This document shows, in pieces, positions 1,589-56,010 of a DNA stretch of 64,000 nucleotides. Both the position numbers and the translations under genes were made by a program. The DNA is from Toxorhynchites rutilus septentrionalis (Eukaryota; Arthropoda; Insecta; Diptera; Culicidae), in the NCBI RefSeq assembly GCF_029784135.1, contig NC_073746.1, positions 4,112,136-4,176,135 on the forward strand, read 5' to 3'. Position 1 is the first letter of the stretch; each line of letters starts with the position of its first letter. Below the pieces are notes generated by a model. That model was not told the DNA's origin. It did not search any database and saw nothing but the letters and a program-made list of their open reading frames with translations.

Positions 1589-2035
1589 ACGAATACTGGG
1601 AGAACACGCTCATCGGAGAAACGGTTTCTTTTCTTCGCTGGTCTTGCTCACCTCAGTGAATAGATTGATGGAATCTCTCATTCATACAAGCTGTTTCGCT
1701 GAGCTTTATAGTCTCTGAGAGAAACAGTTATGAGCATATTATACCTAGCAGACCATTTAACACCGTATGATTGGAAAAAATAGAATTCGGGCAAGGCGAA
1801 CCAGCCCAGGAGGCTGAAAGTCTCTCAAGTAAAGAATAAAAAAAAAAAGAATTCGGACACCTTACAAAATAAAGTTCGTAGCACTTATGTTATTCACTAT
1901 TTAAAATACAGAACGATTACAGATGACTGAGGGTTAACTAATCTACGTACTGACGTAGTTGTTACCTTAATATTCAAGAGCACGGCCAAGATAAATCCAT
2001 TCTCGCTTAGGGGGTGCATATTACACACTTCTCCT
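1589..2035 (+). repeat. Dispersed repeat, inverted partner at about 25108-25500
   Basis: This ~450-bp block matches the reverse complement of about 25108-25500. Both copies share a GCACGAATACTGGGAGAAC end, the CTCTGAGAGAAACAG-like segment, the GTTAACTAATCTACGTACTG segment and the ATTCTCGCTTAGGGGGTGC end. The left copy contains an extra 54-bp insert at 1794-1847 that the right copy lacks. The repeat carries no open frame of note. I do not recognise the family. It could be a MITE or an LTR fragment. Confidence 0.75.
1794..1847 (+). mobile_element. Ultra-short retroposon-like insert, copy a
   Basis: This is a 54-bp insert with an A-rich 3' end (about 10 A at 1838-1847). It is flanked by 12-bp direct repeats at 1782-1793 and 1848-1859 (AGAATTCGGGCA and AGAATTCGGACA). 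The inverted paralogue near 25,300 has a single AGAATTTGGGCG at the matching point and no insert, which is an empty site. The core can fold with an AGCC/GGCT inner stem. Related inserts lie at 19918, 20477, 22983 and 55090. Confidence 0.75.
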
Positions 2036-2379
2036 ATACCTATCTCTACGAACACGCGTCATTTAGATGCAACACACATATACAGCCTTTCCGTGCCAAA
2101 CCGAAAAATCAGTTTTTTCCTAATTTTTTCTAAAAAAAAACATTTTTTTCAAAAGTTCATGACTTTTGAATTACTGGACCGATTTAGGTGATCGACAAAT
2201 CAAATTAATTCCTATGCCACTAGACTAGATCTATGCGACTAGAATCTATTTTTTCCGCAAGTGTAGTATTTTTTCAAAGAAGCTCATTGACCTCAATCCA
2301 ATATATAGATATTCTGAATAGGTTTAGTAGTTCAAAAGTTATGATTTTTTGGAAAAGGGGGAAAATGATTTTCCGGAAC

Positions 2380-2745
2380 ATAACATCACATCTGTTCCGT
2401 CCCAACGAAAGAGAAAACCCCCCGTCGTATGCCACGCCAACAAATTACGAAATTACTCGAAATTACTCGGCACAGCAGAGAAAACCTAACCACAACGCAA
2501 TTCGCGCTCGCTATAAAAGCGAGGTGCGCTGCCCGAATATCATTATAAACCATTATAATATTGTAGAAGAAGAAAGATATATACGCATTGGAGTTTAAAG
2601 TTTTCCGCCATCTTTCTTCTCTGCAACCATTCCGAAAGAGTATTCAGCTTTTCTCAAGGCTTCTGATCCAACGAATCAACCTCCGTCCGACTACGTTCCC
2701 CGACAAGAGTTCCACCCGTTCAGCCTATTGGTTCCGAGCTCAGAT
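2380..2745 (+). promoter_or_regulatory. Possible orphan LTR end with TATA box and copia-like PBS
   Basis: A TATA-like CTATAAAAGCGAGG lies at about 2510-2523 in a locally GC-richer stretch. About 210 bp downstream, at about 2725, is TTGGTTCCGAGCTCAG. It resembles the primer-binding site of copia-type elements, which pair with part of the initiator-Met tRNA. No gag follows. I could not find a matching second LTR or a target duplication, so this may be a solo or truncated LTR or chance. Confidence 0.28.
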
Positions 2746-3559
2746 GTTCTCGAAAATATAGTCCACCGCAACCTAGTCTTTGTTCACAGACTGAACAACA
2801 TCTTTGATTTTCGGATATGTTATGTAAAGAATCCTCAAGAATCCTTTCATGAAAAAAAAAAAAAAAAATATAGCGCCCTTGGTCCCGAGCCCATATAAAC
2901 TATAAAAAATCAAATACAATCAATAATTACGAAAAATAAATTTTAATATTTTGAATTTTAAAGATTGGTATACTGATCGAATTGAATCTAAGATCTAAAG
3001 CAGCCCTTCCACGGAAATCCGTAGTGTCATTACCTGTAATGATATTCATTCGATTCAATTTAATTCGAGTATTCATATTGTTATCGTCTCTAATTTAACA
3101 GGTGTGCTTGAACTTTTCTATCGTTCGTCAAAATTATTCACACAAATCGAAATAGAAACCTTTGATGTATTTGCACACAATATTTTGCTGCTTATTTATA
3201 GTATACCAGGGTGACTGTATATGTACAATGATTCACGAAAAAGAAGCAGATTTTGGCAGCTCGCAGGAGTGCAGCAACTCTAGCACTCATATCCGTGGTA
3301 GAAATAATTACGTTTTTGAAATAAAGATTATAAATAAAAACCATCTTTCCTGTGACGAATAAATATTCCAATTGATAGTTTGAAAAGTTTTGTAAACAAT
3401 GAAACAATCCTGAACGAGAATTTTTTTTTTAATTTTAACTCAAAAAATTGTACTTATAATATTCTTCAGAACTGGAAAATAACTTGGAAAATAACTGATG
3501 TTCCTGTTACTGGGCCGCTATGCTGGATGGCAAGAAAGTGACAGAAAGGTGAAGAGGTA
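2746..3559. other. No gene seen; AT-rich spacer
   Basis: The stretch holds a poly(A) run at about 2850-2868 and no coding sequence that I can support. Short open frames around 3160-3400 look like chance. Confidence 0.45.
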
Positions 3560-4478
3560 CAGGGTGGGCCATTTAAAGTGGAAGGATTTGTTTTTGCAAT
3601 AGCAAAGTAAAGAAGTGGAATTTTAAATTTTTTTTTTTGAAATTCATTTATTTTGGTCCAAGGAGATTTTTTCTAACTACTTTTTGATTATGATATCTCG
3701 TAAATGACCGCCTCTGGCCTTAACCGCAAAATGTGCCCTTTTTTCGGCATTTTCCATCACTTTGCCCAATGTTTCGGCCGATATGGCAGCAATTTCTTGT
3801 CGGATATTGTCTTTCAGCGCAGCCAGGGTCCTTGGTTTATCAGTGTATATCTTGGATTTTAAATATCCCCATAAAAAAAAAGTCAGGAGGCGTCAAATCA
3901 GGTGATCTCGGTGGCCAGTCATAATCGCCGTTTTTCGATATTAATCTTCCGGGGAACATTTCGCGCAATAATTTGGTCGTGGCAGCCGCTGTATGGCATG
4001 TAGCGCCGTCCTGTTGGAACCAGTAATTGTCCAATTCATTTTCACGAACAAATGGCAATAAAAAGATGCCTAACTCTTGCGAACGATGGCGACCTGATGT
4101 CGATGGAGTCTCTGCAACACTGGCTCGAACGGCATCAATATTCTCGTCGAAACGTCTTGGTCGTTGTCTGGACAGATGACTGGCATTACCAACACTACCA
4201 GACGATATAAATTTGGCATATAATCGACGTATAGTGTTGTCTCCAGGCGATGTTTTAACTTTATTTTTATTTTTCCACGCACGTTTAGTTAACACAATTG
4301 AGAAGTTATTTTGAATGTACAGCTGAACAATTTCAGCTCGTTGTTTAGGTGTGTATTGTTCCATGGTTAAAATTGTACTGAAATGACGCTTCCAACGTGG
4401 TATGACATGTGTTAATCTGACATCTCTGTCAAAAGTTATGGGGTTGCCAGATGCTTCCACTTTAAATGGCCCACCCTG
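3560..4478 (-). mobile_element. DD41D (rosa-type) Tc1/mariner element, internally deleted
   Basis: This 919-bp element is flanked by TA (3558-3559 and 4479-4480). It has perfect 25-bp terminal inverted repeats that begin CAGGGTGGGCCATTTAAAGT. The transposase remnant reads on the minus strand. Full elements of this group are about 1.3 kb, like the one at 15149-16452, so roughly 400 bp is missing from the middle. The element lies across the start of a tandem duplication (3868-7443). Confidence 0.87.
3690..4364 (-). pseudogene. DD41D transposase pseudogene, deleted and frameshifted
   Basis: The start is the ATG at 4364-4362 (MEQYTPKQRAEIVQLY), a typical N-terminal helix-turn-helix start; upstream codons read through the TIR. 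After about 110 residues (SQELGI) the frame jumps to FLLPFVRENELDNYWFQQDG. The segment with the first catalytic Asp is therefore gone. The last two acidic residues remain, QQDGATCHTA and SPDLTPPDFF, with 41 residues between the two Asp (DD41D). A run of A at 3871-3880 then shifts the frame. The natural C-terminus (GYLKSK to GGHLRDIIIKK) can still be read from about 3850 down to 3690. It cannot make an active enzyme. Confidence 0.87.
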
Positions 4479-6218: not shown

Positions 6219-6332
6219 GGTTAAAATTGTACTGAAATGACGCTTCCAACGTGGTATGACATTTGTTAATCTGACATCTCTGTCAAAAGTTATGGGGTTG
6301 CCAGATGCTTCCACTTTAAATGGCCCACCCTG
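5724..6332 (-). mobile_element. Truncated DD41D element in second duplication unit
   Basis: This copy keeps the right TIR (6308-6332, followed by TA at 6333-6334) but loses its left end at the duplication breakpoint near 5724. It came from local duplication, not a separate insertion, because its right flank is also duplicated. Confidence 0.85.
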
Positions 6333-8635: not shown

Positions 8636-8637
8636 TA

Positions 8638-12761: not shown

Positions 12762-12920
12762 TTTTTTTTTTTTTTATCTGTATTATAGTGATTTTCAACT
12801 CATTTGGCTGGTTCGTCACTTTTACTTCCATTTTTGGAAGAATGTCGGGAGTGAGAATTGAACTCGTGACCTTCAGCGTGAGAGGCATGGATGTTACCAC
12901 TACGCCAGATCGCCTCCACG
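12762..12920 (-). mobile_element. tRNA-derived SINE, copy 1
   Basis: On the minus strand it begins GGAGGCGATCTGGCGTAGTGG (A-box region) and has a B-box-like GAGTTCAATTCTC about 45 bp on. It ends in a poly(A) seen as poly(T) at 12762-12776. The flanks carry a 12-bp direct repeat, TGAATAAAATAT, at 12750-12761 and 12921-12932. It matches the copies at 21052 and 27221. SINEs of this kind are transcribed by RNA polymerase III and use a LINE's reverse transcriptase. Confidence 0.88.
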
Positions 12921-13100
12921 TGAATAAAATATAAAATATATGTGTATAATATAAAAATTAGCGGTAAACGTTAAACATAAGCTTTGACTCAATATAACTC
13001 AACAGAAACATTAGTCAATCACTATACCACAGATTTATTCTGGACTAGCTGAACCGGCAAACTTCGTCCCGCCCAAAACTTGTTTTTTTTGTTATCAATA

Positions 13101-14370
13101 AAGGGTGTGTCACATCAAATTGCATCACGGAAAAAACGCTGTAGAAATTTAATTTTTAGGAATTATATCTTCAGCTTTCGCTTATAATCAGATAAGAGTG
13201 TATAAATCACGTTGACCATGCTTCACTGTCAATTTTTCGAAAATTTGGAAAAATGTCGTCGAACGAAAAAGAGCGTCGTGAATTAATCCTGTGCACTCAT
13301 TTCGAGAATCCTGAGTTGTCACATCGGGACATCGGTAAGATGCTGGGAATCGTCCAATCCACGGTCAGGAGAGTACTTAAACGATACTTCGAGAACCTAA
13401 CCATCGACCGGAAGGTGAAGAACGGCAAAAATGGATGCTCCGTCAGTGAAAAAGATCACAGGCGCGTAGTTAAGCAGTTTAGACGTGATCCGAGAAGTTC
13501 GGTCCGGGATGTCGCCAATAAGCTGAATTTGTCAAGTTCATTCGTCCAGCGGACCAAGCAGCGGGAGGGCCTGCGTACATACAAGGTTCAGAAGGCTCCT
13601 AACCGCGACGAAAGGCAAAACATGGTGGGGAAGACGCGAGCCCGGAAGCTGTACACCGAAATGCTGACGAAGCCGCATTGCCTGGTAATGGACGACGAAA
13701 CGTACGTCAAAGCGGACTTTCGTCAGCTGCCGGGCCTGTTGTTCTTCTCCGCAGAGGACAAATTCAGCGTTCCGGAGGAGATTCGCAAGCAGAAACTATC
13801 CAAGTTTGCCAAAAAGTATATGGTGCGACAAGCGATCTGCTCTTGCGGAAAGCGGAGCGCCCCCTTCGTGATGACCGGCACGGTAAACGGGCAGGTTTAC
13901 CTTAAGGAGTGCCTACAGAAGCGCTTACTACCACTATTGAAGCAGCACGAGGGCCCGACCATCTTCTGGCCGGATCTCGTTTCGTGCCACTATTCAAAGG
14001 ACGTGTTGGAGTGGTACGAAGCCAACGGGGTCACCTTCGTGCCAAAGGAAATGAACCCGCCCAACGCGCCGGAGCTTCGCCCAATAGAGAAATATTGGGC
14101 GATTATGAAGCAGGCCCTCCGGAAGAACCCAAAAGTTGTCAAATCGGAGGCGGACTTCAAGAGAAAATGGATTTCTGTTGTACAGAACCTTATGGACGGG
14201 GTAAAGAGGAAGGTGCGTACGGGCTTGGGCTCGAAGTATGAATAAAAAGAAAATACCAAAAGTTGTTTAATAGTTTTTATTTTACTGTCTAAAATTTTCA
14301 AAAGGATCGGTCTACTGGGCGAATTTCTACAGCGTTTTTTCCGTGATGCAATTTGATGTGACACACCCTT
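13101..14370 (+). mobile_element. ITmD37E transposon, copy 2
   Basis: This 1270-bp element is flanked by TA (13099-13100 and 14371-14372) and has the same ~48-bp TIRs as copy 1. It is 28 bp shorter. The difference is explained by a 24-bp in-frame deletion and a 4-bp deletion near the 3' end of the transposase gene. Confidence 0.93.
13253..14245 (+). CDS. ITmD37E transposase, small deletion and altered C-terminus
   Basis: This 330-aa frame is very close to the 338-aa protein at 301. All three catalytic acids are kept (VMDDETY, FWPDLVSCHYS, RPIEKYW; 37-residue spacing). Relative to copy 1 it lacks eight residues after KWISV, and a 4-bp loss changes the last few residues to GLGSKYE. The helix-turn-helix region carries S to R and other single changes. 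It might still fold, but the missing C-terminal segment makes activity doubtful. Confidence 0.85.
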   Translation: MSSNEKERRELILCTHFENPELSHRDIGKMLGIVQSTVRRVLKRYFENLTIDRKVKNGKNGCSVSEKDHRRVVKQFRRDPRSSVRDVANKLNLSSSFVQRTKQREGLRTYKVQKAPNRDERQNMVGKTRARKLYTEMLTKPHCLVMDDETYVKADFRQLPGLLFFSAEDKFSVPEEIRKQKLSKFAKKYMVRQAICSCGKRSAPFVMTGTVNGQVYLKECLQKRLLPLLKQHEGPTIFWPDLVSCHYSKDVLEWYEANGVTFVPKEMNPPNAPELRPIEKYWAIMKQALRKNPKVVKSEADFKRKWISVVQNLMDGVKRKVRTGLGSKYE

Positions 14371-14372
14371 TA

Positions 14373-19700: not shown

Positions 19701-19917
19701 TTGTATTGATTAAATTCTTGATTGAATGAAACAGTTTCCAAATTCAATTGAGTTCAATATATTTGCTCTGTGAGTGAAAAAAATGAACAAATGCCGTGTA
19801 AAGTCAATTCATTTATTTTGATTGATTGTTCTTCGTTACAAGTAAATTTAATGACGGACCTTTTACGTTTGGTATGATGACTAGAACAAAATATATGTAC
19901 GGAAGAATTATCAAACG

Positions 19918-19964
19918 TTTGATGAACCAGCCTAAGGCTGAAAATCTTTCCAATAGACAAAAAA
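19918..19964 (+). mobile_element. Ultra-short retroposon-like insert, copy b
   Basis: This 47-bp insert has a GATGAACCAGCCTAAGGCTG core and an A-rich 3' end. It lies between 12-bp direct repeats AATTATCAAACG (19906-19917 and 19965-19976). The AGCC/GGCT inner stem matches copy a. Confidence 0.72.
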
Positions 19965-20089
19965 AATTATCAAACGATTATTTTATTTTACATTTCCCTC
20001 TGAAGTTTACATCCTAAAAGTGTACATACTTCTCGAATCTCGAATTTGCTTGAAACTGGGAAGTTCATTCGCTTCTAGTGTCTGTACGA

Positions 20090-20695
20090 TTTTCCCAGGT
20101 TCCTAAGTTTAGAAGATCATGTTAGGACAGTCATATTCCACTCTGCACAAAGGCAAGCGAGGACAAAAGTACTCGCAGTTTGCATTTATTTGCAGAGCCG
20201 ATTTCCCCAGAAACCTCGGTTTTGAAGTCTGTGTTAGGGAAACACATTTCAATCGGAACAAAAATACCCCCGATTTGTATAAATTCGCAATGCCGATTTC
20301 CCCACGCTCCATGAATTTGAAGAAGTCTGTGTTAGGGAAACACATTCCAGTCGGAACAAAAATACCCCCGACTTGCATGAATTTGAAATACCGCTTTCTC
20401 CAGGCACCTTGGTTTAGAAATCTCTATTAGGGAACACATTTCGGTGGGAAAAAAGCTCCCCCTACTTTCGTGTGTTCTTCTTCTTCTTTTTGGCTTTAAG
20501 AGGGTTTAAACTTTTCAGTTCACTCGCCTCTAGGCTCTTTCGTGTGTTTGCAATGCCGATTTCGCTGCTTGGTTTTAAAGTCTGTGTTAGGGAACATTTT
20601 TCGATGAGAACAAAAGTCCCCCTACTTTCATGTATTTGCAATGCCGATTTCCCCAAGGCTGCTTGGTTTTGATGGCTGTGTTAGGGATACCGTAA
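20090..20695 (+). repeat. Minisatellite, ~95-115 bp period, about 6 units
   Basis: Units carry ATGCCGATTTCCCC, a CTTGGTTTTGAAG stretch, TCTGTGTTAGGGAA and ACAAAARTACCCCC. The TCTGTGTTAGGGA mark recurs near 20113 (diverged), 20228, 20325, 20421, 20581 and 20675. One unit is longer because a 60-bp insert lies at 20477-20536. The array sits inside the TA-flanked element. Confidence 0.85.
20477..20536 (-). mobile_element. Ultra-short retroposon-like insert, copy c
   Basis: This 60-bp insert interrupts a minisatellite unit between 12-bp direct repeats CTTTCGTGTGTT (20465-20476 and 20537-20548). On the minus strand it reads TAGAGGCGAGTGAACTGAAA and then an AGTTT return arm, and it ends in an A/G-rich tail. 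The minisatellite gives an independent empty-site comparison. Confidence 0.77.
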
Positions 20696-21051
20696 ATCGG
20701 GCCAATCAAAACGATGCAGTTAGGGCGTTTAGATAACGCCTAATATTTTACAGTTATTCAAAGGCCGGCTGGAGTGCAAAGCTATTTTACACGACCACGC
20801 TATCCACATGGCTAATGATGCTCTGGCAGTTGTTCAGCAACTACGTGATAATATTGCACCTGATTATATAATGAAGTTGGAAAGTGTTTTCTAATGGCGG
20901 GTTTACATTAGGGAGATCTATAGCTATAGATGGATTTATTCACGTGAAAATAGGTGTAAACGGGTGAGAATAAATATGAGCTTGAGCTTGAGCTTGGGTA
21001 AACTGTACAATTCGTAGTTGCTCTCCGTGATTGACCTGAACCAACCAAATT

Positions 21052-21211
21052 AGGAGGCGATCTGGCGTAGTGGTAACATCCATGCCTCTCACGCTAAAGG
21101 TCACGAGTTCAATTCTCACTCCCGACATTCTTCCAAAAATGGAAGTAAAAGTGACGAACCAGCCAAATGAGTTGAAAGTCACTATAATACAGTAAAAAAA
21201 AAAAAAAAAAA
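21052..21211 (+). mobile_element. tRNA-derived SINE, copy 2
   Basis: It begins GGAGGCGATCTGGCGTAGTGG at 21053, with the A box at about 21062-21072 and the B-box-like GAGTTCAATTC at 21105-21115. An 18-A tail ends at about 21211. The target duplication AACCAACCAAATT (13 bp) lies at 21039-21051 and 21212-21224. It is the cleanest of the three copies. Confidence 0.93.
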
Positions 21212-21519
21212 AACCAACCAAATTGCACAAAGAACACACAGAATGACGCTTGGGACTAGCAAATCATTCTCGTTGTGCAATTTTCGGTGATTTGAGCTTT
21301 CAATGATCAATAACGACGCCGGCCACGTCCTTACAGTCACCAGGGGAAGGGTAGGAATGTTAGTATGATATTCGCCGCCCGAAGGCCGGAAGGGTCGCCT
21401 CTATAGCGTGGTTCCCTAGCGTTTATCATGGAAGGGATAGTTTGTTAGTGGGAAGGGGTAATAATCAGGATTCACTGTGGTAAGTGATGTGATTATGCTA
21501 ACGCAAACTAGAGATCACT

Positions 21520-22833: not shown

Positions 22834-23406
22834 CCCAGGATTTTTAGGGGAGTCTCCGTAGCCACAATGGTTGCACGTTCGCTTAGTAAGCGATCGATCG
22901 TGAGTTCAAAACTCAGGGCCCTTCTTGACCATCTTTGTGTTGTTACAGAATAACTACGTCCACGCAACAATCATCAGCGATGATTGATTGATTCTTTGTT
23001 TTTAAGAGGCTTCGAACTTTTCAGTTCATTCGCCTCTAATCAGCGATGGAGATCGATCAACGGTCGAAATAAGATCGATTCATCCATACAACTGCTCTGC
23101 TCTGCAAGACATATCGGGCTACTGTTATATAAATAACTCAACAATGATCAATCAACTGTCTCCGCTGTCCGGTGGTCTATTTGGATAATGGAAGAACAGA
23201 AGGAATACTCTTACGCCTAAATGGAGACTGTGTAATTGTACTACATACAATGGTATAGAAGGAATACTCTAACGCCGAAAAACTGTGCAACTGTGTAATG
23301 TGCTAATTATAGATATGTTAAACATGTGGCATGTACACGATTAAAATTTCGGCTCTGTTACAGTTAATATGCTAATGAGCCTAAAATAAACAAAAGGGAT
23401 GAAAAA
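22834..23406 (+). mobile_element. Second, longer tRNA-related SINE inserted in Tc1
   Basis: A tRNA-like head has TAGCCACAATGGTTGC (A-box-like, about 22859-22874) and GAGTTCAAAACTC (B-box-like, 22902-22914). It is followed by a body with a GAAGGAATACTC repeat (23199 and 23258) and an A-rich end near 23390-23406. The direct repeat AACAAGATT flanks it (22825-22833 and 23407-23415). Removing it restores the Tc1 frame MEVRNLVLQD. The body also contains the 56-bp insert at 22983-23038. The family differs from the short SINE at 21052. Confidence 0.72.
22983..23038 (-). mobile_element. Ultra-short retroposon-like insert, copy d
   Basis: This 56-bp insert sits inside the SINE between 10-bp direct repeats ATCAGCGATG (22973-22982 and 23039-23048). 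On the minus strand it reads TAGAGGCGAATGAACTGAAA with AGTTCGAAGCCTCT returning. That gives an AGAGGC/GCCTCT outer stem and a GAACT/AGTTC inner stem. Confidence 0.77.
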
Positions 23407-25107: not shown

Positions 25108-25500
25108 GGTGATGTATAGGAGAAGTGTGTAATACGCACCCCCTAAGCGAGAATGGACTTATGTTGACCGTGCTCTTAAAATTTAAGGTAACAACTATGT
25201 CAGTACGTAGATTAGTTAACCCTCAGTCGTCTGTAATCATTATGTATTTTAGATACTGAATAACAAAAGTGTTACGAATATTATTTTGTAAGGCGCCCAA
25301 ATTCTAAATTTCCAATCATACGGTGTTAAATGGCCCAGCAGAAGTATAATATGCCCATGAATTGTTTCTCTCAGAGACTATGAAGCTCAGAGAAACAGCT
25401 TGTATGAATGAGAGATTCCATCAATCTATTCTCTTCATGCCTACCAGCGAAGAAACCGTTTCTCCGGTGAGCATGTTCTCCCAGTATTCGTGCGTTAATT
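25108..25500 (-). repeat. Dispersed repeat, inverted partner of 1589-2035
   Basis: This is the reverse complement of the left block at about 80-90% by eye. It lacks the 54-bp insert and so preserves an empty target site near 25300. Confidence 0.75.
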
Positions 25501-27220: not shown

Positions 27221-27367
27221 TATTTTTTTTGCCTATTATAGTGACCTTCTACACATTTTGGTTCGTCATTTTACTTCCATTTTGGGAAAAATGTCGGGAG
27301 TGAGAATTGAACTCTCGATCTTTGTGTGAGAGGCATGGATGTTACCACTACGCCAGATCGCCTCCAA
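27221..27367 (-). mobile_element. tRNA-derived SINE, copy 3
   Basis: It matches copies 1 and 2, with the start (reverse) at CGCCTCC 27361-27367 and the tail as poly(T) at about 27222-27230. The target duplication AACCACTAACTTTTA (15 bp) lies at 27206-27220 and 27368-27382. The body has a few small deletions relative to copy 2. Confidence 0.92.
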
Positions 27368-27490
27368 CCACTAACTTTTAAATTTTGAATTCCGAAATGT
27401 TATTTTAATGAACTAATTCAGACGTATCATACTGTATTTTTTTCAAATAGAAGTAAGAGATGTGTTCTACGTAGCGTACTGTGAGACGTA

Positions 27491-28780
27491 AAGGGTGTGT
27501 CACATCAAATTGCATCACGGAAAAAACGCTGTAGAAATTCGCCCAGTAGACCGATCCTTTTGAAAATTTTAGACAGTAAAATAAAAACTATTAAACAACT
27601 TTTGGCATTTTCTTTTTATTCATACTTCGAGCCCAAGCCCGTATGCTCGTACCTTCCTCTCTACCCCGTCCATAAGGTTCTGTACAACGTCAGGTTGTAG
27701 TTTTTTTTTGAACAGAAATCCATTTTCTCTTGAAGTCCGCCTCCGATTTGACAACTTTTGGATTCTTCCGGAGGGCCTGCTTCATAATCGCCCAATATTT
27801 CTCTATTGGGCGAAGCTCCGGCGCGTTGGGCGGGTTCATTTCCTTTGGCACGAAGGTGACCCCGTTGGCTTCGTACCACTCCAACACGTCCTTTGAATAG
27901 TGGCACGAAGCGAGATCCGGCCAGAAGATGGTCGGGCCCTCGTGCTGCTTCAATAGTGGTAGTAAGCGCTTCTGTAGGCACTCCTTAAGGTAAACCTGCC
28001 CGTTTACCGTGCCGGTCATCACGAAGGGGGCGCTCCGCTTTCCGCAAGAGCAGATCGCTTGCCACACCATGTTCTTTTTGGCAAACTTGGATAGTTTCTG
28101 CTTGCGAATCTCCTCCGGAACGCTGAATTTGTCCTCTGCGGAGAAGAACAACAGGCCCGGCAGCTGACGAAAGTCCGCTTTGACGTAGGTTTCGTCGTCC
28201 ATTACCAGGCAATGCGGCTTCGTCAGCATTTCGGTGTACAGCTTCCGGGCTCGCGTCTTCCTCACCATGTTTTGCTTTTCGTCGCGGTTAGGAGCCTTGT
28301 ATGTACGCAGGCCCTCCCGCTGCTTGGTCCGCTGGACGAATGAACTTGACAAATTCAGCTTATTGGCGACATCCCGGACCGAACTTCTCGGATCACGTCT
28401 AAACTGCTTAACTACGCGCTTGTGATCTTTTTCACTGACGGAGCATCCATTTTTGCCGTTCTTCACCTTCCGGTCGATGGTTAGGTTCTCGAAGTATCGT
28501 TTTAGTACTCTGCTGACCGTGGATTGGACGATTCCCAGCATCTTACCGATGTCCCGATGTGACAACTCCGGATTCTCGAAATGAGTGCACAGGATTGATT
28601 CACGACGCTCTTTTTCGTTCGACGACATTTTTCCAAATTTACGAAAAATTGACAGTAAAGCATGGCCAACGTGATCTATACACTCTTATCTGATTATAAG
28701 CGAAAGCTGAAGATATAATTCCTAAAAATTAAACTTCTACAGCTTTTTTTCCGTGATGCAAGTTGATGTGACACACCCTT
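27491..28780 (-). mobile_element. ITmD37E transposon, copy 3
   Basis: This 1290-bp element is flanked by TA (27489-27490 and 28781-28782). Its length equals copy 1 minus 9 bp (three codons) plus 1 bp (a homopolymer insertion). One TIR has a few substitutions (near 28735-28765). Confidence 0.93.
27690..28628 (-). pseudogene. ITmD37E transposase, C-terminal frameshift
   Basis: The frame starts at ATG 28628 and gives 312 aa. It lacks the residues VQK after LRTYK. The catalytic D, D and E are all present (VMDDETY, FWPDLASCHYS, RPIEKYW). A run of nine A, where copy 1 has eight, after KWISV shifts the frame, so the protein ends in KKTTT and loses the last ~25 residues. The original C-terminus (VVQNLMDG to VRA..LGLEV) is still readable in another frame down to about 27630. 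Confidence 0.87.
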
Positions 28781-28782
28781 TA

Positions 28783-28969
28783 GAACCATGGAAAAGGTCA
28801 CCATAATAAAAACTAAAAAAAAATGGGTCTAATGTTTTGTGATAAGAAACAAAATTGTCACTTTTCTCGAAAATCTGAGAATCACTATATCGATTTGGCA
28901 TGGAATGGTTGCATATGTGCATAAAAAAATTAAATACATTTTTTTTCGATTCGATTTTATACTGACGCT
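28783..28969. other. Spacer before the LINE
   Basis: AT-rich, with no feature. The 5' edge of the LINE could lie in here, but it is not marked by any signal I can see. Confidence 0.35.
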
Positions 28970-35799: not shown

Positions 35800-35800
35800 A

Positions 35801-36425: not shown

Positions 36426-36597
36426 TTTTTCCATCGCGTCATACAAAACGCGTTCATATGTTTGTAGTTGTGTTGTGATGCGAAATAGCTACGTTATTCA
36501 CACCAGTGCCCAAAACAAAATCGGAAACGTTCCGACAAATCATATCGAAAAGGATTGTGAAAAATAACGTCGCGTGTGCAAATTTAAACCTTCAAAA

Positions 36598-39500
36598 ATG
36601 GCCACCAAAAAGAAGCTTAAAGAAAGGTTGATATTGCGAAAGTCATTAGAGTCTTCTCTAGACACTATAGAAGCTTTCACCGATCAGTGCGATGAGGAAA
36701 CTGATCCCAATCAAATCCTCGTGCGGTTGGACATGATCGATAACATTTTTCGTGAGTATAATAAAACCCAAAGTGAAATTGAAAAATTAGATTGTGGAGA
36801 AGCGCCCCTTGCCAAGCACCTGATAGAACGGCAGAAATTTGAAACACGATATTGTACCCTGAAAGGTTGGTTGATGTCCAGGAAACCAGCAGAAACAATT
36901 CCACCAGTAAGCACTTCTGTAATTACTCAGCAAATTCCACCGTCATCAGTTTCACCATCATTCCATCTGCGATTGCCGAAAATCGACCTTCCGAAATTTG
37001 ACGGATATTTTTCACGATGGCTAGGTTTCCGTGATACATTTAAGTCGATGGTGCACGATGTTCTAGAAATTCCTCCAGTCGCGAAGCTGCAGTTCTTATT
37101 ACAATCACTAGAAGATGAGGCGCGCAAGCCTTACGAGACGGTGGATATCGAAGCAGCCAACTATCACCTAACCTGGGAAGCTCTCCTCAAACGATATGAC
37201 AATACGCGTTTCCTGAAAAAACAGTTGTTTAGAGCTCTGCATGATCTCAGCCCGATTCGCAGAGAAAACCTCCAAGATCTCCGAATGTTAGTAGATGATT
37301 TCCAACGTCACGTAAGAGCTCTGGCGAAGTTAGGTGAGAACATATATAAATGGGATACTCCGCTCGTTTGTATGATGTGTTACAAATTGGATCCCATGAC
37401 GCTCCGAGCATGGGAAGAATATGCCACAACTAATGATCAAGATGATTACGTACACTGCATCGAATTCCTGTACCAGCGATTGCGTATTCTCCAGACGGTC
37501 TCCTCAGAAATCCAGCATCGTTCACAGGTGACCACGGTTAAGCCTACCGAGTTTAGTCAATTTCCGAGAAGATACCCTCCCCCGAAAGCGATTGCAAACG
37601 TAGCCGCTCCAAATACGAATACGAATATAAATTTTCCTACTTGTATAGCATGTCCAGAAAGCCATTATCTATATCAGTGTCCGACGTTTCAAACCATTCC
37701 CGTAAGTCAACGAATAGAGCTCGTTAGCAAGAAAGGTCTGTGCTGGAACTGTTTTAAAACTTCTCATGTTGCACGCAGTTATGATTCCAAATATAGTTGC
37801 CGCCATTGTCATGAGCGCCATCATACGCTACTTCACCAATCCGCTAATCCAGTACAACCATCCAAGATGTTGTCCTCTACAGTCCTATCCACACAAGCAT
37901 TACCAGCTGCTAATATGGCAGACCCAAATAGAACAACCCATCCGAATAATGAAGTTAGCGTACCAGTTCAGCACCACTCATCCAACACAGTATTTCTATC
38001 GACGATTATTTTTTATATAACCGACAAATTTGGAAACGAGCATCAAGCAAGAGCGTTAATTGACTCGGGGTCCCAGTCAAATTTAATTTCGAAGAAGTTA
38101 GCCAACCAGCTGTGCCTGAAACCAGAACAAGTCAACATTCCAATTTCCGGAATTGGTGAAATGACTGTCACCGTTACCAAGTCAATTCTAGCCGATATTC
38201 GTTCTAGAGTAGAATATTATCGATCCAAACTCGAATTTTTAGTTCTTCCAAAACCAACTGTGAAAATCCCAGCAAATGACGTTAACGTTTCCTCGTGGAA
38301 CATTCCTGAAACAGTCAAATTAGCGGACCCCTTTTTCAATATATCGAGTCGTATTGATATAATATTAGGTGCCGAAAATCTTCATGAATACCTGCGGGCT
38401 GGTAGGGTTCATCTCAACGAAAATTGTCCTGTTCTAGTCGAAACAGTTTTTGGCTGGGTTGTGACAGGTCGCTGGAACCACACGTTGCCATACCCTTCTT
38501 CTGTGTGTCATACCGCATTGACGTACCGCAAATTAGAGTCAGTATTAGAGAGATTTTGGGAATTGGAATCCATTCAACCTCGGCGACTTTATTCCAATGA
38601 CGAGACATCTTGTGAGGAGCTTTATGCAGCAACTACCAAACGAAATGAGAACGGAAGATATATCGTGTGTTTGCCGAAAACCCAAGACACCACAGTCAGA
38701 CTTGGTGAATCCCGATCCATCGCAGAAAAACGCCTTTTTAGTTTGGAGCGCCGGCTTGAGAGAGACGAAACAGTGAAAAATGCATACCATCAGTTTATGG
38801 ATGAGTATTTCCAGCTCGGTCACATGCATCGTATTGATGAACCCGTTGACGATTTCATTCCACACTGCTATCTGCCACACCATGCCGTTTTTGAGGCTAC
38901 AAGCAAAACAACAAAAACAAGGGTAGTATTTGATGCTTCCTGCCGTACGTCTTCCGGCTTCTCATTAAACAACTTACTCCCTGTCGGTCCAGTGGTACAG
39001 GAAGACCTCCTAGCAATTGTGATGCGCTTCCGAATAAGACCGGTTGCGATAGTGGCGGACATCGAGAAGATGTACCGTCAGATTGAAGTACATGAAAATG
39101 ATCAACCCCTCACTCGCATACTGTGGCGAAAACGTCTTTCTGATCCAATATCCACATTTGAACTAAGAACCGTAACCTACGGTACCTCAGCTGCACCATT
39201 TCTCGCCACCCGCACACTCGTTCAACTCGCTAAAGATGAAGGTGACCGTTTTCCGTTGGCAAAGCAGATTGTCCTCGAGGATTTTTATGTCGACGACCTT
39301 ATAAGCGGAGCGAATGATCTTCAGACTGCAATTCATCTCCGTCGACAACTAACTGCAATGTTAGAAACCGCAGAACTCAAATTAAGGAAGTGGGCCTCGA
39401 ATGCTCTAGAAATATTAGCCGAAATTCCTGAGACAGATCGTGGCGTTCAGCCATGCTTCGAACTTTCCGATGAACAAGCAGTAACAACACTTGACTTGGT

Positions 39501-41851
39501 CTGGGAGCCAAAGACAGACACACTACGATTCCGAATCAATTTACCACTTCCTGCGACAATCCTCACGAAGAGAAATGTTCTCTCGTACATTGTACAAGTA
39601 TACGACCCACTTGGCCTGGTAGGCCCCGTTATATCCACTGCGAAACAATTCATGCAACGTCTTTGGGCATTAACGACCGATGAGGGAAAGGTCTTTTCGT
39701 GGGATGAACCGCTCCCATCGAAACTCCAACGTGAATGGAAGGAATTCCATACTCAACTGAAGCTACTGAGTGAAATACGAGTTCCTCGCTTCGTTTCAGC
39801 ACCATTTACGGAACATTTCCAGCTTTCGGATGCTTCCGAAAAATCGTATGGCACATGTGTATATGTATGTACGGAAGATAAACAACACAACGTAAAAATC
39901 CAACTCCTATCTGCGAAGTCCCGCGTTGCTCCATTGAAGACACATCAATCCATCCACTCGTTTAGAGCTCTGTGCAGCATTACTCTCCACAGAATTGTAC
40001 AGTAAAGTAACAGCTGCAATAAAGGAACAGGCTACAGTTTTCTTCTGGGTATCCATCCATGACAGTATTGCACTGGTTGAAAGCGTCACCATCACATTGG
40101 AAAACATTTGTCGGCAATCGTGTGTCGAAAATTCAGGAAGCCACCGTTGGATGCTCCTGGCATTATGTACCCGGAAGTGATAACCCCGCAGATGAAATTT
40201 CCCGTGGTCTTAGTCCTGACGAATTATTGCACAACCGAAGATGGTGGACTGGCCCTACGTGGCTTTCCCAAACAGTGGAATATTGGCCAGAGCAACCGCT
40301 GAATATCATCCAGCCCCCCGATGAATTAGCTGAGAAGCGCAAAATTTGCAATATTTCAAATATTCCATCACGTCACCCGACGTTTAGTGACTGGTTATTC
40401 AGTCGTTACTCCAGTTATATCAAACTTCGAAGAATTACAGCACAAATTTTACGTTACATCCGTGCGTTGCACAAAACCGCAGCAGAAAATCATCCAACTG
40501 TGGCATGTGCAGCTTTATGCAAACCAACAGGATCATTCTCATATTTTTCATATGAACACATGCAAACAGCCGAAGATTCCTTGTGTCGTCTCGCACAGCG
40601 TGACTCCTTTTCCGCTGAATTTGAAACTCTTCAGAGAGATCATCTGGTAGATTGTACGAAATGACATCATCAGAATTGGTGGACGAATTAGTCGATCAGC
40701 GATTCCCGAAAATGCCAAACACCCAATCGTATTGAGTGGAAAGCACCGACTCACTATACTTTTAGCCGAATATTATCACCGAAATCTGATGCAAGCAGGA
40801 CCGCAATTAATGATGAACACCATTCGACAAAAATTTTGGATTCTTGGCGGTCGCAATCTTCTACGCCAGGTTTATCACAGATGTATTACCTGCTTCCGAC
40901 AAAAACCTAAACTTATCCAGCAAATGACTGCTGATCTTCCTGCATCTCGTGTCAATCCCTCACGACCTTTCTCAGTGACCGGACTGGATTATTGCGGGCC
41001 AGTACTTCATTTGCTTTTCTACACGCGCAATCCACCTGGAGCTGGTCGGTGATCTCAGTACTGCGGCATTCATCGCGGCTTTACGGCGATTCTTCTCATT
41101 GCACTCAGACAACGCCACCAACTTTAAAGGTACCGCAAACGAGCTCCAGCAGCTATACAAAATGTTAAAGGTGAATGATGCCGATCGCCAACTGATATTC
41201 AATTGGTGTGCCAATTCCGAAATCAACTGGAAATTTATACCCCCGCGCGCACCCCATTTCGGTGGGCTATGGGAAGCGACAGTGAAATCTACCAAAACTC
41301 ATTTACCCAAGCAAATGGGAAATACCGTCGTTACACAGGAAGAGATGTTAACGCTTCTTGCACAAATAGAGATGTGTTTGAACTCTCGTCCTCTCACCGA
41401 GATGTCAAACGATCCAGGGGACTTAGAGGCCCTTACTCCAGGTCATTTTTTGGTAGGATCGAATCTACAGGCAATTCCAGAGTCCGACTTAAAACAAATA
41501 CCGGACAATCGATTAAATCGTTGGCAGCTCGTCCAGAAGCGTATACAGCAAATATGGCGTAGATGGTATCCAGAATACATACAGCATCTACAACGTCGCT
41601 CTACCAAAGGATGCAAGCTATCGACTGAAATTCATATCGGTCAACTAGTGCTCATCAAAGATGACAATCTCCCTCCAGCCCAATGGTCCATTGGACGAAT
41701 AGTGAAGACTCATCCGGGACGAGATGGAATCGTCAGGGTTGTAACCTTGAAAACCCCAGTAGCCGATAATGTAATGCGACCTGTGGCAAAGATCGCTCTT
41801 TTGCCTGGACCAACGAACGTGGAATGTGAATCCGAAGACGAACCAAAATAA
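36598..41851 (+). pseudogene. BEL/Pao gag-pol polyprotein, decayed in the pol 3' half
   Basis: The start is ATG 36598 (MATKKKLKERL) in a good AAAATGG context; an earlier in-frame GTG is unlikely. The first ~1135 codons are open. Gag has the LPKIDLPKFDG block near residue 130, and CCHC zinc knuckles lie at about 348-415 (CWNCFKTSHVARSY). The aspartic protease is ALIDSGSQSNLIS near 486. RT carries TRVVFDASCR near 773 and the YVDDLISG active site near 897. RNase H starts LSDASEKSYG near 1076. A frameshift near 39960, a second near 40055 and a third near 40660 follow. The integrase keeps HHCC (40740-40910), GLDYCGPV, HSDNATNF and GGLWEATVKS but has lost segments near 41015 and 41095. It ends CESEDEPK. 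No env is present. It cannot make a full pol. Confidence 0.9.
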
Positions 41852-49450: not shown

Positions 49451-49464
49451 TAAATACACCCAGG

Positions 49465-50897: not shown

Positions 50898-53800
50898 TTT
50901 AGATAGAGAGGTCGGAGATATCACTGTTTTTCAGTGGAATTGTCGTAGTCTTATCCCTAAATTGGATACATTCAAATTTTTAATTCATAACTTCAATTGT
51001 GATGTTTTTGCTCTGTCCGAAACGTGGCTTTCTTCGCGAGATGATATCTCTTTCCACGATTTTAATATTATACGCTTGGACCGTGATGATAGATACGGAG
51101 GGGTGTTATTGGGGATCAATAAGTGCCACTCATTTTTTCGAATTGACCACCTATTGGAGGGATCGAAGCTGTTGCTTGTCATGCAAACATCAGAGGCAAA
51201 GACCTCTGTATTGTCAGCTTGTATTGGCCTCCGAGAGCTGCGGTTAGCCGCAAACAACTTGATGACATGTGCTCACTCCTTCCTGAGCCACGATTGATCT
51301 TGGGAGACTTCAACTCTCATGGAACTGCCTGGGGGGAACAGTATGACGACAATCGTTCATTGTTGATATATGACCTTTGTAACAACTTCAATATGACCGT
51401 TTTGAACACTGGGGAAACAACACGTGTGCCTAAACCTCCTGCTAACCCAAGTGCTCTTGACCTCTCGCTTTGCTCGAATTCACTATCGTTAGATTGCAAG
51501 TGGAATGTAATCCAGGACCCCAACGGTAGTGATCACTTGCCAATCAAAATTTCCATCACCATTGGGTCGAATTCTTCTGAATCTATAAACATGGCATATG
51601 ACCTCACAAGACACATTGACTGGAAAAAATATGCGGACGCGATTGCTCTAGCCATCAATTCCAGAGATGGTTTACCTCCATTGGAGGAGTATAACTTCCT
51701 TTCTCGTTTGATCTATGACAGCGCGGTTCGCGCTCAAACGAAACCCATCCCAGGTTCCACTATTCGTCGAAGGCCTCCCAATCTATGGTGGGATAGCCAA
51801 TGTTCCAAGCTTTATGTAGAAAAATCGAATGCATTTAAAGCTTTTCGGAAACGTGGAACCCCTGAAAATTTTCAGACGTATTTGGACCTTGAAAATCAAT
51901 TTAAAAACTTGATCAAAGGGAAAAAACGTGCTTATTGGCGAAATTTCGTGGGTGGTTTGTCACGAGAAACGTCAATGAAAAAATTATGGAAAGTGGCTCA
52001 AACATGAGAAATCGCTCTTCAACGAATGAAAGCGCAGAATATTCACATCGATGGATTTTGAATTTTGCACGGAAGGTTTGTCCTGATTCCGCTCCTGTGC
52101 AAAAAATTGTTCGAGATATACCACAAGATAGGTGCGATCTTGATTCCGAGTTTTCGATGGTAGAATTCTCTCTTGCTCTCCTTTCATGTAACAATTCTGC
52201 TCCGGGATCGGATAGAATTAAGTTCAACTTGCTGAAAAATCTCCCTGATGTGGCGAAACATCGCTTGTTGAACTTATTCAATCGGTTTCTGGAGCATAAT
52301 ATTGTTCCAGATGATTGGAGACAAGTACGAGTTATAGCTATTCAAAAACCCGGAAAACCCGCGTCCGACTTCAATTCGTACCGCCCAATAGCAATGCTGT
52401 CTTGTATACGGAAATTGTTGGAGAAAATGATCTTGTTTCGCCTTGATCGATGGGTTGAAACGAATGGCCTACTCTCAGATACACAATATGGGTTCCGCAG
52501 GGGCAAGGGGACGAATGATTGTCTTGCGTTGCTTTCTTCAGAAATTCAAATGGCTTACGCCGGAAAAAAACAAATGGCTTCAGTATTCTTGGACATAAAG
52601 GGGGCCTTTGATTCAGTTTCAATAGAGGTTTTGTCAGACAAATTACACTCTCGGGGTTTGCCGCCTCTATTGAATAATATGTTATATAACTTGCTTTGTG
52701 AGAAACATTTGAACTTTTCTCACGGAGATTCGGCAGTAAGTCGGGTCTCTTACATGGGCCTCCCCCAGGGCTCATGTTTAAGCCCCCTTTTGTACAACTT
52801 CTATGTAAGCGACATCGCCAATTGCCTTACACAAAATTGCAGCCTAAGACAACTTGCAGATGATGGAGTGGTGTCTGTCGTAGGATCAAACGAATCGGAC
52901 CTGCAAGGACCCTTACAAGATACTTTGAACAATTTTTCAACCTGGGCCATTGGGCTAGGGATCGAATTCTCCACGGAGAAAACAGAGATGGTGGTTTTTT
53001 CTAGGAAGCATAGACCAGCAAAACCAAAGCTTCAACTTTTGGGTAAACCCATCACTCATGCTATGTCATTCAAGTATCTTGGGGTCTGGTTCGACTCCAA
53101 ATGTACTTGGGGGGCCCATATTAGGTATCTGAGTAAAAAATGTCAACAAAGAATAAACTTTCTCCGTACAATTACCGGCACCTGGTGGGGAGCCCATCCC
53201 GAAGATCTTATTATGTTGTATCGAACAACTATTCTCTCAGTGATGGAGTATGGCAGTTTCTGTTTTCAATCAGCTGCCAAAACACACCTCATTAAACTCG
53301 AGCGAATTCAGTATCTTTGTCTCCGTATTGCGTTGGAAGGTATGCCCTCAACGCATACCATGAGTCTCGAGGTTTTGGCAGGCGTAATCCCACTAAAAGA
53401 TCGCTTCAATTTATTATCTCTTCGGTTCCTCATCCGGTGTAAGGTTATGAATCCATTGGTGATCGGAAATTTTGAGCAATTGATCGAGCTAAATTTTCAT
53501 TCTGGATTCATGAATTCATATCATGAATTCACCTCTATGCAGGTTGTTCCTTCTTCGTATATTCCCAACCGTGTTTGTTTTCCTGGCTACATCAATTCCT
53601 CTGTACATTTCGATCTGTTCATGAAGGAGAAAATCCATGAAAATCCAGATTATCTTAGATTGGGGTTCGTTCCTACAATCTTCAATGCAAAGTATGGGCG
53701 TATCAATTGTGATAATATATACTTTACTGATGGGTCCTCTATGAATGAGTCCACAGGATTTGGAGTGTTCAACGTATTTTTTAGCACCTCACACAGTCTT

Positions 53801-54457
53801 CAGAATCCTTGCTCGGTATATATTGCTGAATTGGCAGCGATATACTGGGCGCTGGACAGCGTCGCCTCACGACCTGTTGAACACTATTACATTGTAACGG
53901 ATAGTCTTAGCTCTGTCGAAGCTATCCGTTCAGTGAGGCCGGAAAAGCACTCGCCGTACTTCCTTGAGAGAATACGAAAAATTTTGAGTGCTTTATCCAG
54001 ACGCTGTTATGTCATTACCTTTGTCTGGGTCCCTTCACATTGCTCAATTCCGGGTAATGAGAGGGCTGACTCTCATGAAGATGAATTGGGCCGGTGGTTT
54101 CACTCGATTATCCCTACGGTTAGCCTCAAACCGTGGTTCAAAAGTCTAGACTTGAGTCGGGACTTCATCCGCACCTTCTCCCGACTCATGTCCAATCACT
54201 GTTCGTTAGATGCACTACTCTTTCGTTTCAATCTTGCCAGCAGCAATCTCTGCGTTTGTGGCCAAGGTTATCACGACATCGAGCACATTGTTTGGTCGTG
54301 CGAGGTGTATCTGGTCGCCAGATCGAATTTAGAAAACTCCCTTCGGGCCCGAGGAAGACAGCCCAATGTGCCGGTGAGAGATGTGTTGGCTCGGTTAGAC
54401 CTTGATTACATGTCCCATATATATGTTTTCCTTAAAGCTATAGATCTTCGTGTGTGA
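50890..54457 (+). pseudogene. I-clade LINE ORF2 with two frameshifts
   Basis: The ATG at 50890 (MSNLDREVGDITVFQWNCRS) starts the endonuclease. QWNCRS, LSETWLSS and LGDFNSHGTAWG are visible. A frameshift near 51150 and another near 52000 split the protein into three frames; the rest is open to 54457. RT has KPGKPASDFNSYRPIAMLSC, LDIKGAFDSVS, GLPQGSCLSPLLYNFY and the active site LADDGVV (usually FADD). RNase H has YFTDGSSMNES, AELAAIYWAL, IVTDSLSSVEAI and VPSHCSIPGNERAD. The C-terminus has CVCGQGYHDIEHIVWSCEVY. With only two lesions it decayed recently. Confidence 0.9.
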
Positions 54458-54879
54458 TTGTCCCTACATCCTAATACCCTCCTTTCCTTCCTTTGCGGGT
54501 TATTCGTCCCCTTGCTATAAATAGTAGAATAAGTTGAAATGTAAATAAACTATAGATATACGAATAGATTTAAGAATTGAGTGCTCATCAACATTGTTAC
54601 AATTTCCTTATATCCCATCCTTCTCCTAAAAATATGTCACCCTTCTAAACTCGAGTACACCGCGAGTAATCGGTTCTCCACCTTACTAACCATAGATGTA
54701 AGAAAATTGTTTCTATATATATATAGTTTTAAAAATATATTTAAGAATTCGGCTCCTTTAAACTTAAGTAACTGAGCCTGTAAAAATAAACGAATTAAAA
54801 AAAAATAAAAAAAAAAAACTTATACTTCAACTTCATATCCTCTTCGAAAAATTACTATTAATGTGTAACTCGTAACATT

Positions 54880-56010
54880 TTAGTGTGCAAATTTCTCGCG
54901 ATTGACATGTTCCGCAAACTTTCTCCTATTTCGAAACATTTGATATATGTCAAACGCGAAAATTTACTCACTATAATGTTCCGAGTGAAATTTTTTTTTC
55001 AGTGGTGTCCATACAAAAATGACATATATTCCAGAAACTATAAATGACAGAAAGTTGACGTCTTCGACAAATGTTCATATTTTATTAAGGAAGAAAGGAA
55101 GGTATTGAATTAGAGAGACTTTAAACTCTGAGAGTTCATTCGTCTCTATTTTATTAAGATATACAACTTTGTCAAATACACTCTAGTTTTAGAAAAATGT
55201 GGTTTTTGGTAAATTTGGTAAATCTGAACAATTTCCTACATTTCATTATTTGAGTAACATTTTATAGGTATTATAGTTTTTGCGTTATTCCTATTTGTAA
55301 AAAAAATAATAAAAAAAAATAGCCGTTTAATATTTCAAAGTAAGTAAAGTTCTTAATTGGCCAATGGATTCACACTAACAACGTTTCACTGTAATCTGAG
55401 CTATTGCTGCCAATTTTACTGAAATTCATCTAATGCTTAAAGCAGTTGTCTAGTCTAGAAATTTGAAAAAAAAACAAAATCTAGAAACTAGTTTATTCAA
55501 CTGGCGTACACCATATCTCAATTTCTACGGAACCGATTCATGCCGAATTTGTATGGATATAATCTGCAGACAACTCGCTATCGCATGAATCTCATAAACA
55601 TGATATTCTTTTAGGTTTCACTATTTTTAAAAAATCGGGAAACGTAATCAAAAACGATTTAAACCGCATTTTGCTTTTCAAACGGTCGCCATTTTGTCAA
55701 AAAAGGTGTTTTTGACATGTCCGAGGTTCATGCGATAGCAGCATCTTTACTGATTCAGAATCTGTTCGATTTGTTTGTTTCAGATAACCAGAAGGGCTGC
55801 AATCGTGTACACCATGGCGCAACTTTTTTCTGAACCCTCTCACTTCATCAGCTCTTAACTATTCTAGTTATGAACTATTCTAGTAAAACTAGAATAATTT
55901 ATTCTAGAAAACTATAATGAAATAACTAAGAAACTAGAATAAATTAATTATTGCTCTGGAGCTCGAAAAAAAACATCCGAAATGCGTGTCTCTACACTAG
56001 AATACCCCCT
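54880..56010 (-). repeat. Long AT-rich repeat, copy 1
   Basis: Blocks CCATACAAAAATGACA, CTGGCGTACACCATATCTCA, the AAACCGCATTTTG...GCCATTTTG segment, CGAGGTTCATGCGATAGC, CAGATAACCAGAAGGGCTGC and a final CTACACTAGAATACCCCCTT recur in order at 58440-59655. Read on the minus strand it starts GGGGTATTCTAGTGTAGAGA. It is non-coding. A 57-bp insert lies at 55090-55146. Confidence 0.75.
55090..55146 (-). mobile_element. Ultra-short retroposon-like insert, copy e
   Basis: This 57-bp insert lies between 12-bp direct repeats TATTTTATTAAG (55078-55089 and 55147-55158). The minus strand reads GAGACGAATGAACTCTCAGA, and the return arm gives AACTCT/AGAGTT and AGAGAC/GTCTCT stems. A related block near 56210-56230 has a single TATTTTAATAAA with no insert. 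Confidence 0.75.

What the first reader, a model, noticed from the sequence alone, without database searches (positions are those of the whole stretch)
1794..55146. Five copies of a 47-60 bp structured retroposon-like family
Inserts at 1794-1847, 19918-19964, 20477-20536, 22983-23038 and 55090-55146 are each bracketed by 10-12 bp direct repeats. Each folds into an outer stem and an inner stem. The stem sequences differ but stay complementary. Inner stems are AGCC/GGCT (copies a, b), GAACT/AGTTC (c, d) and AACTCT/AGAGTT (e). Outer stems are AGAGGC/GCCTCT (d) and AGAGAC/GTCTCT (e). The 3' end is A-rich in copies a-d and ends in mixed tails. Covarying stems with target duplications in units this small point to a very short RNA-mediated element. 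No pol III boxes are visible, so the transcription and priming mode would be new to me.
Basis: partly seen in the sequence, partly recalled or inferred. Interest (0 to 1): 0.87.

Follow-up and report, generated by a model that had tools for sequence, protein, structure and literature searches.

The report
Fifty-base hairpin retroposons in a mosquito
A mosquito genome holds thousands of copies of a roughly 50-base hairpin that also forms the tail end of much longer jumping genes; in a sample, about half had been inserted on their own and cut at the same point, which would make them unusually short mobile DNA.

Summary
In detail: all five inserts are real, each between 10-12 bp target duplications, and oriented alike they are one structured family. 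A whole-window covariance search finds eight such modules: these five and the 3' ends of three SINE-like elements with pol III box strings. One core pattern occurs 12,650 times in it and the a/b core 3,140 times; reversed-pattern controls give 0 and 1. Copy e has the letters of the 3' terminus of a 6.4-kb EN-RT-RNase H LINE with target duplications. They do not look like ordinary truncations: of 98 copies read, 53 have a target duplication within 70 nt upstream (4 in a permuted control), and 47 of the 53 end within -6..+5 of the hairpin base. LINE-type modules number 1684; with 16 nt more upstream, 280. A second subtype (4,725 copies) showed no recognisable longer parent in 40 copies read (28 with a duplication at the stem, 12 less clear). 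No parent is known for a and b. Best reading: RNA trimmed to the tail hairpin is reverse-transcribed by a LINE. New variant of a known kind.

The parts
1794..1847 (+). copy a: hairpin-only insert (CCAGCC/GGCTG inner stem, A tail); TSD 1782-1793 and 1848-1859
   Evidence: paralogue without it at 25114-25479 (-)
19918..19964 (+). copy b: hairpin-only insert; TSD 19906-19917 and 19965-19976
20477..20536 (-). copy c: hairpin-only insert with (GAA)n tail; TSD 20465-20476 and 20537-20548
   Evidence: neighbouring repeat unit lacks it
22983..23038 (-). copy d: hairpin-only insert, AGAGGC/GCCTCT (G-type) stem; TSD 22973-22982 and 23039-23048
55090..55146 (-). copy e: hairpin-only insert with the letters of the LINE-type (C-type) module; TSD 55078-55089 and 55147-55158
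   Evidence: LINE 3' ends
21052..21211 (+). full-length SINE S1 with A-box string TGGCGTAGTGG and B-box string GTTCAATTC; ends in the same module (21149-21204); TSD 21039-21051 and 21212-21224
12762..12920 (-). full-length SINE S2, module at 12766-12821, TSD ATATTTTATTCA
27221..27365 (-). full-length SINE S3, decayed inner stem, TSD TAAAAGTTAGTGGTT

Best explanation
The inserts are hairpin-only copies of the 3' recognition tail of a LINE system, placed by LINE machinery through target-primed reverse transcription. The LINE protein recognises a two-stem hairpin plus short tail at the 3' end of its own RNA and of dependent SINE RNAs. Such RNA is also present as fragments degraded from the 5' side down to the base of that hairpin (a nuclease-resistant or protein-protected footprint of about 45 nt plus tail). 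The protein primes on such fragments, runs off their 5' end, adds a few untemplated nucleotides and completes a normal insertion with a TSD of mostly 10-13 bp. SHOWN: for C-type copies, identity of the module with LINE 3' ends; TSDs; 5' ends concentrated at the hairpin base; extra nucleotides that mostly do not match the LINE; copy numbers. INFERRED: binding by the LINE protein (by analogy with zebrafish stringent LINEs), the trimming nuclease, run-off, and that G-type and a/b copies have such parents too.
For: The C-type module is the end of full-length LINE copies: L053 has TSD TGGATTTCTCAT, L052 has TGTTCTGGCTGA; endonuclease, RT and RNase H domains found. 14 of 16 LINE 3' ends fetched carry it (6 of 6 from one lineage, 8 of 10 from another whose RNase H region is ~65% identical). 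Of 98 copies read (98 of the 100 places listed), 53 have a TSD at score >=9 within 70 nt upstream against 4 with permuted flanks; 47 of 53 end at -6..+5 of the outer stem. LINE-type module 1684 copies, with 16 nt more upstream 280. 44 of 47 hairpin-only copies keep the 5' arm AGAGR intact; extra 5' nucleotides are T-rich (51 of 87) and do not match the LINE in 8 of the 9 C-type copies that have them. No A/B box pair. Need of the 3' stem-loop and its binding by the region between endonuclease and RT: PMC4176376 (passages).
Against: No RNA data, so no such fragment has been seen; the nuclease step is untested. Extra nucleotides at 5' junctions can also arise when an RT stops early on a longer template (established knowledge). 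The base just before the stem is T in 38 of 40 G-type copies, more constant than random addition would give, so it may be templated. No LINE with a G-type or a/b module was found. The partner LINE was not placed in a clade by a tree. 51 of the 98 copies are not classed as hairpin-only: 38 share at least 40 nt of upstream sequence with other sampled copies, 13 are unresolved. Four of the 47 have a TSD that reaches into the stem, so their exact 5' end is ambiguous. The 98 copies all come from the first ~9.3 Mb of one contig. In the permuted control 3 of the 4 chance TSDs also fall near the stem.
Confidence: 0.55

Rival explanations
1. The abundant G-type copies (AGAGGC..GCCTCT) are a free-standing micro-retroposon: a dedicated ~50-nt RNA made from its own gene(s) by an external promoter, borrowing the LINE tail structure. 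The LINE only supplies the enzyme.
For: 4,725 copies within 3 mismatches of one 44-nt sequence. Of 40 G-type hits read, 28 have a TSD at the stem; in the other 12 (7 unresolved, 5 sharing upstream sequence that looks like other repeats) no LINE or 200-bp element was recognised. Base -1 is T in 38 of 40. A pattern allowing CAAGG 0-8 nt upstream gave 13 places, all with different letters in between.
Against: The module, tail and TSDs match those of C-type copies that do have a parent. Only 40 copies were read, and shared upstream sequence was judged only among the 98 sampled, so a rare G-type LINE or SINE would be missed; no promoter or gene was sought.
Confidence: 0.25
2. The copies are 5' truncations made when the reverse transcriptase, working on full-length LINE or SINE RNA, stops at the base of the hairpin.
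For: 5' truncation is a common fate of LINE copies (established knowledge). Copy e and the exact C-type matches have the LINE's own letters.
Against: The stop lies after the hairpin has been copied, where its fold is no longer in the way (inference). Modules without the 16 nt upstream outnumber those with it about 5 to 1 (1684 versus 280; the patterns cover partly different letters and ends 1-15 nt upstream count with the former, so the ratio is approximate). Extra bases mostly do not match the LINE.
Confidence: 0.15
3. Plain chance hairpins, or DNA-mediated miniature inverted-repeat elements.
For: Short hairpins and short direct repeats do occur by chance; the stems form a small inverted repeat.
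Against: 12,650 and 3,140 exact genome matches against 0 and 1 for the reversed patterns. TSD length varies, 9 to 15 with one of 17 that runs into a neighbouring copy; a tail lies beyond the 3' arm, so the inverted repeat is not terminal.
Confidence: 0.02

Closest known systems
Stringent-type LINE/SINE 3' tails (UnaL2, ZfL2-1, ZfL2-2; PMC4176376, passages seen)
   Same: 3'-terminal stem-loop shared by a LINE and its SINEs; in ZfL2-1 the stem can be exchanged at about half activity
   Different: There the stem-loop is part of LINE or SINE copies; here the tail alone is found inserted. Two stacked stems with a GAAY/AAA internal loop
Gecko SINE and MosquI / I-74_AAe LINEs of Aedes aegypti (table row and reference titles seen in PMC3747384; the Gecko paper is not held)
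   Same: Mosquito tRNA-type SINE paired with an I-type LINE through a shared 3' end; changing 3' tails by title
   Different: Sequences could not be compared; nothing about a tail-only form in the passages I saw
SINEs with pol III boxes (S1-S3 of this window)
   Same: Same 3' module, TSDs, A tail
   Different: They carry a head with A- and B-box strings; the five inserts have no such pair
5'-truncated LINE copies
   Same: Retain only the 3' end and have TSDs
   Different: 5' ends gather at one structural point instead of being spread

Membership tests
SINE (tRNA-derived, pol III) | Internal A and B boxes in a tRNA-like head | tested here: not met
   No A/B box pair in a-e (a lone B-like string in d); S1-S3 have both strings. 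For S1-S3 themselves a tRNA origin rests on the strings only: no Rfam tRNA match in S1, no ARAGORN gene in the window
SINE (tRNA-derived, pol III) | 3' end shared with a LINE, TSDs | tested here: met
   TSDs; C-type module shared with LINE ends. For a, b, d only the module family is shared, not a known parent
LINE-mobilised retroposon with stringent tail | 3' hairpin shared by an autonomous LINE | tested here: met
   Full-length LINE with EN, RT, RNase H and TSD ends in the C-type module; 14 of 16 LINE 3' ends
LINE-mobilised retroposon with stringent tail | LINE protein binds the hairpin and needs it | not testable with these tools
   Only by analogy with PMC4176376
Ordinary 5'-truncated LINE copy | 5' ends spread along the element | tested here: not met
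   47 of 53 TSD-supported ends at -6..+5 of the stem, within a 70-nt search; 1684 versus 280
I-superfamily LINE (partner) | Endonuclease, RT, RNase H, CCHC ORF1 | tested here: met
   Pfam PF14529, PF00078, PF00075; CX2CX4HX4C seen in ORF1, although ORF1 has no Pfam hit
I-superfamily LINE (partner) | Clade by tree with named references | not tested
   No named reference set at hand; relatives mostly unnamed
MITE / DNA transposon | Terminal inverted repeats and fixed-length TSD | tested here: not met
   Tail beyond 3' arm; TSD length varies
Gecko SINE | Sequence identity to Gecko | not testable with these tools
   Paper not held; no mosquito repeat library

The most novel reading that the evidence does not exclude
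A self-sustaining retroposon lineage of about 45 nt plus tail, the G-type, has spread to thousands of copies with a precise 5' end and no internal promoter or longer parent. It would be a mobile element reduced to nothing but the enzyme's recognition hairpin, and among the smallest retroposons known (from recall; no survey made).
Probability: 0.28. Interest if true: 0.88.

Novelty: new variant of a known kind. Interest (0 to 1): 0.7.

Why it matters
It suggests a minimum for what a LINE needs in order to insert RNA: one hairpin and a tail. It supplies a large natural set of insertions whose 5' ends may record where LINE RNA is trimmed or protected in germ cells. It gives a clear genomic case for asking whether degraded RNA is a major template of target-primed reverse transcription, and it warns that genome annotation may miss or misname elements this short.

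Tried and rejected
Rejected: an unrelated novel element (the module ends the window's SINEs and the genome's LINEs); a MITE (no terminal repeats); the I-11-like LINE inside the window (51219-54457) as the partner (no module at its 3' end: no hit there among the 24 listed). Led nowhere: scans of viral contigs and GTDB contigs gave no mosquito DNA that I recognised; L001-L003 look like chance matches in bacterial-type sequence. Rfam: no gathering match in the window; weak unrelated hits at lax thresholds. A weak ninth CM hit (28767-28823, E 0.4) lies partly in a mariner-like end; the site without the transposon did not fold as a module. A G-type parent was sought by sampling, by looking at shared upstream sequence and by one pattern: none found, but only 40 copies were read. 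Paper searches (held PMC library only; three of them returned nothing) listed nothing that I recognised as a tail-only retroposon; I saw their listings and starts of abstracts, and passages of PMC3747384 and PMC4176376 only.
Full report
WHAT IS THERE. The five inserts exist at the stated coordinates, each between target duplications of 10-12 bp. Copies a and b read on the plus strand, c, d and e on the minus strand. Brought into one orientation they align as one family: an outer stem of up to 6 bp, GAAY, a 5-bp inner stem, a short loop, AAA, the outer stem's 3' arm, and a tail. The repeat around a has a paralogue without the insert at 25114-25479 (84%), and c has a neighbouring repeat unit without it.

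IS IT MORE THAN CHANCE. A covariance model of the eight window modules finds those eight (by construction) at E <= 8.5e-10 and nothing else below E 0.4. A model of a-e alone finds the tails of two full-length SINEs in the window (1.4e-7, 1.6e-5; the third 0.4), which is an independent test. Pair counts on eight rows: 89% of cells paired, 13 double changes against 5.7 in shuffles, covariation score 0.43 against at most 0.09 when slid. On 20 rows (8 window, 12 genomic rows chosen by me, 10 of them from the 45 distinct cores): 92.5% paired, 23 double changes against 7.3, score 0.37 against 0.19 in shuffles and at most 0.10 slid. Two of five measures in each count do not exceed shuffles. The structure was taken from these sequences, and 10 genomic rows were found with a pattern that fixes most of the inner stem, so they test mainly the outer stem.

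SURROUNDINGS. Three SINE-like elements of 145-160 bp with TSDs lie in the same window and end in the same module. They have A-box and B-box strings; the five inserts have no such pair. Their tRNA origin rests on those strings: Rfam and ARAGORN gave no tRNA. The I-11-like LINE at 51219-54457 does not end in the module.

THE GENOME. The window lies in a 902.6-Mb assembly. Its contigs C1 and C3 have the lengths given for Toxorhynchites rutilus septentrionalis proteins (206,424,179 and 333,097,027); the species identification rests on that. One core pattern of c-e type occurs 12,650 times exactly (reversed pattern 0) and the a/b core 3,140 times (reversed 1). These counts include modules inside longer elements; if the sample below were representative, about half of the 12,650 would be hairpin-only (extrapolation).

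THE PARENTS. L053 holds a LINE of about 6.4 kb between copies of TGGATTTCTCAT; L052 holds a second between copies of TGTTCTGGCTGA, at 97-99.7% identity over the aligned pieces. Domains: endonuclease, RT and RNase H. In L053 reading is interrupted between RT and RNase H; many matches lie in longer open frames, up to 1,261 aa. Both end in ...CCCTCAAGGGCA-AGAGACGAATGAACTCTCAGAGTTTAAAGTCTCTCTAATTCAATA(CCTTC)n (C-type). Fourteen of 16 LINE 3' ends fetched carry it: 6 of 6 of this lineage and 8 of 10 of a lineage whose RNase H region is ~65% identical (L101 and L110 lack it within the stretch fetched). An element of about 180-205 bp (L-type, e.g. L014, L037, L039; lengths from TSDs) also ends in it and shows no similarity to the LINE beyond the last ~25 nt except two chance-length words. 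A different LINE in L052 has a module (E 2.2e-6) about 43 nt after its stop codon. For the G-type and a/b modules I know no parent.

5' ENDS. I read 98 of the 100 places listed (all in the first ~9.3 Mb of C1). With a score of at least 9 and a search of 70 nt upstream, 53 have a TSD; with downstream flanks permuted, 4. Of the 53, 47 end between -6 and +5 of the first base of the outer stem; the other 6 lie at -15 to -47, at least four of them inside repeats or arrays. By class: C-type 15 hairpin-only, 3 with LINE upstream, 3 unresolved; G-type 28 hairpin-only, 5 sharing upstream sequence, 7 unresolved; others 4 hairpin-only, 30 sharing upstream sequence (mostly L-type by eye), 3 unresolved. 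A wider search (1,400 nt) on the first 55 copies put the TSD of L-type copies about 90-155 nt upstream of the stem, so the two kinds are clearly apart. The five G-type sharers: three appear to be one insertion inside another repeat; the other two share dispersed repeat sequence by eye; none showed the LINE or L-type. Sharing was judged only among the 98. Genome-wide, the C-type module occurs 1,684 times within 3 mismatches, the same core with 16 nt of LINE upstream 280 times. G-type: 4,725. Inserts with a TSD at the stem measure 49-64 bp, median 56.

JUNCTIONS. Of the 47 hairpin-only copies, 44 keep AGAGG or AGAGA intact; in 4 of the 47 the TSD reaches 1-5 nt into the stem. Between TSD and stem lie 0-6 extra nucleotides, 51 of 87 being T. 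In the 9 C-type copies with extras, 8 do not match the LINE's own upstream letters. In G-type the base at -1 is T in 38 of 40, so the shared RNA may begin with that U, and only bases further out are copy-specific. This fits an RNA whose 5' end is the hairpin base and an enzyme that runs off it; it does not prove it.

MECHANISM. In zebrafish stringent LINEs the 3' stem-loop is needed for retrotransposition and is bound by the region between endonuclease and RT; a stem exchange kept about half of the activity of ZfL2-1, a loop exchange did not (PMC4176376, passages). The present family looks like such a tail: variable stems, nearly constant internal loop. The simplest account is that RNAs shortened to this hairpin remain good templates. 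Which nuclease trims them, or whether the LINE protein itself protects them, is inference. For G-type an independent small RNA gene remains open.

KNOWN OR NEW. The principle (LINE and SINE sharing a structured tail) is known, also for a mosquito pair, Gecko with I-74_AAe/MosquI (table row in PMC3747384). Insertion of the tail alone, many times with a fixed 5' end, I did not find in the searches named under Tried and rejected. That library lacks most subscription papers, including the Gecko paper, so this is not a claim of first sight.

Noticed in passing
L039 (G000:C1:5052280-5054740), L084, and G000:C1:84791108-84791427: Serial insertions at one site: TSD-unit-TSD-unit-TSD (TTTCACTTCT four times around a hairpin-only copy and two L-type elements in L039); five C-type hairpins spaced 67-71 bp at 84791108. 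Suggests repeated use of the same target.
   Followed up: partly
L014, L022, L037, L039 and others: A non-autonomous element of about 180-205 bp starting CATTCTTTGTGTGGACACCGACTGGAC and ending in the module; no pol III search was made on it; the start resembles a TATA-less pol II initiator (from recall).
   Followed up: partly
L052:7013-7602: A second, different LINE whose module follows about 43 nt after the stop codon and is followed by an A-rich tail.
   Followed up: no
window 147-1448, 13099-14372, 27489-28787: Three mariner/Tc1-like transposon copies, 97-99% alike over long stretches.
   Followed up: no
window 22849-22975: Another tRNA-like repeat with a B-box-like string, into which copy d is inserted; no Rfam tRNA match.
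   Followed up: partly
window 51219-54819: I-11-like LINE (85% to a Toxorhynchites protein over 55% of the query) with its own, different 3' sequence and an A-rich end.
   Followed up: partly
window 28788-28823: A GTCACCATAATAAAAACTAn stretch like a SINE tail, directly beside a mariner-like end; too weak to call.
   Followed up: partly
window 36574-41851: Pao-type LTR element remains (DUF1759, Peptidase_A17 in the ORF at 36574-40005).
   Followed up: no
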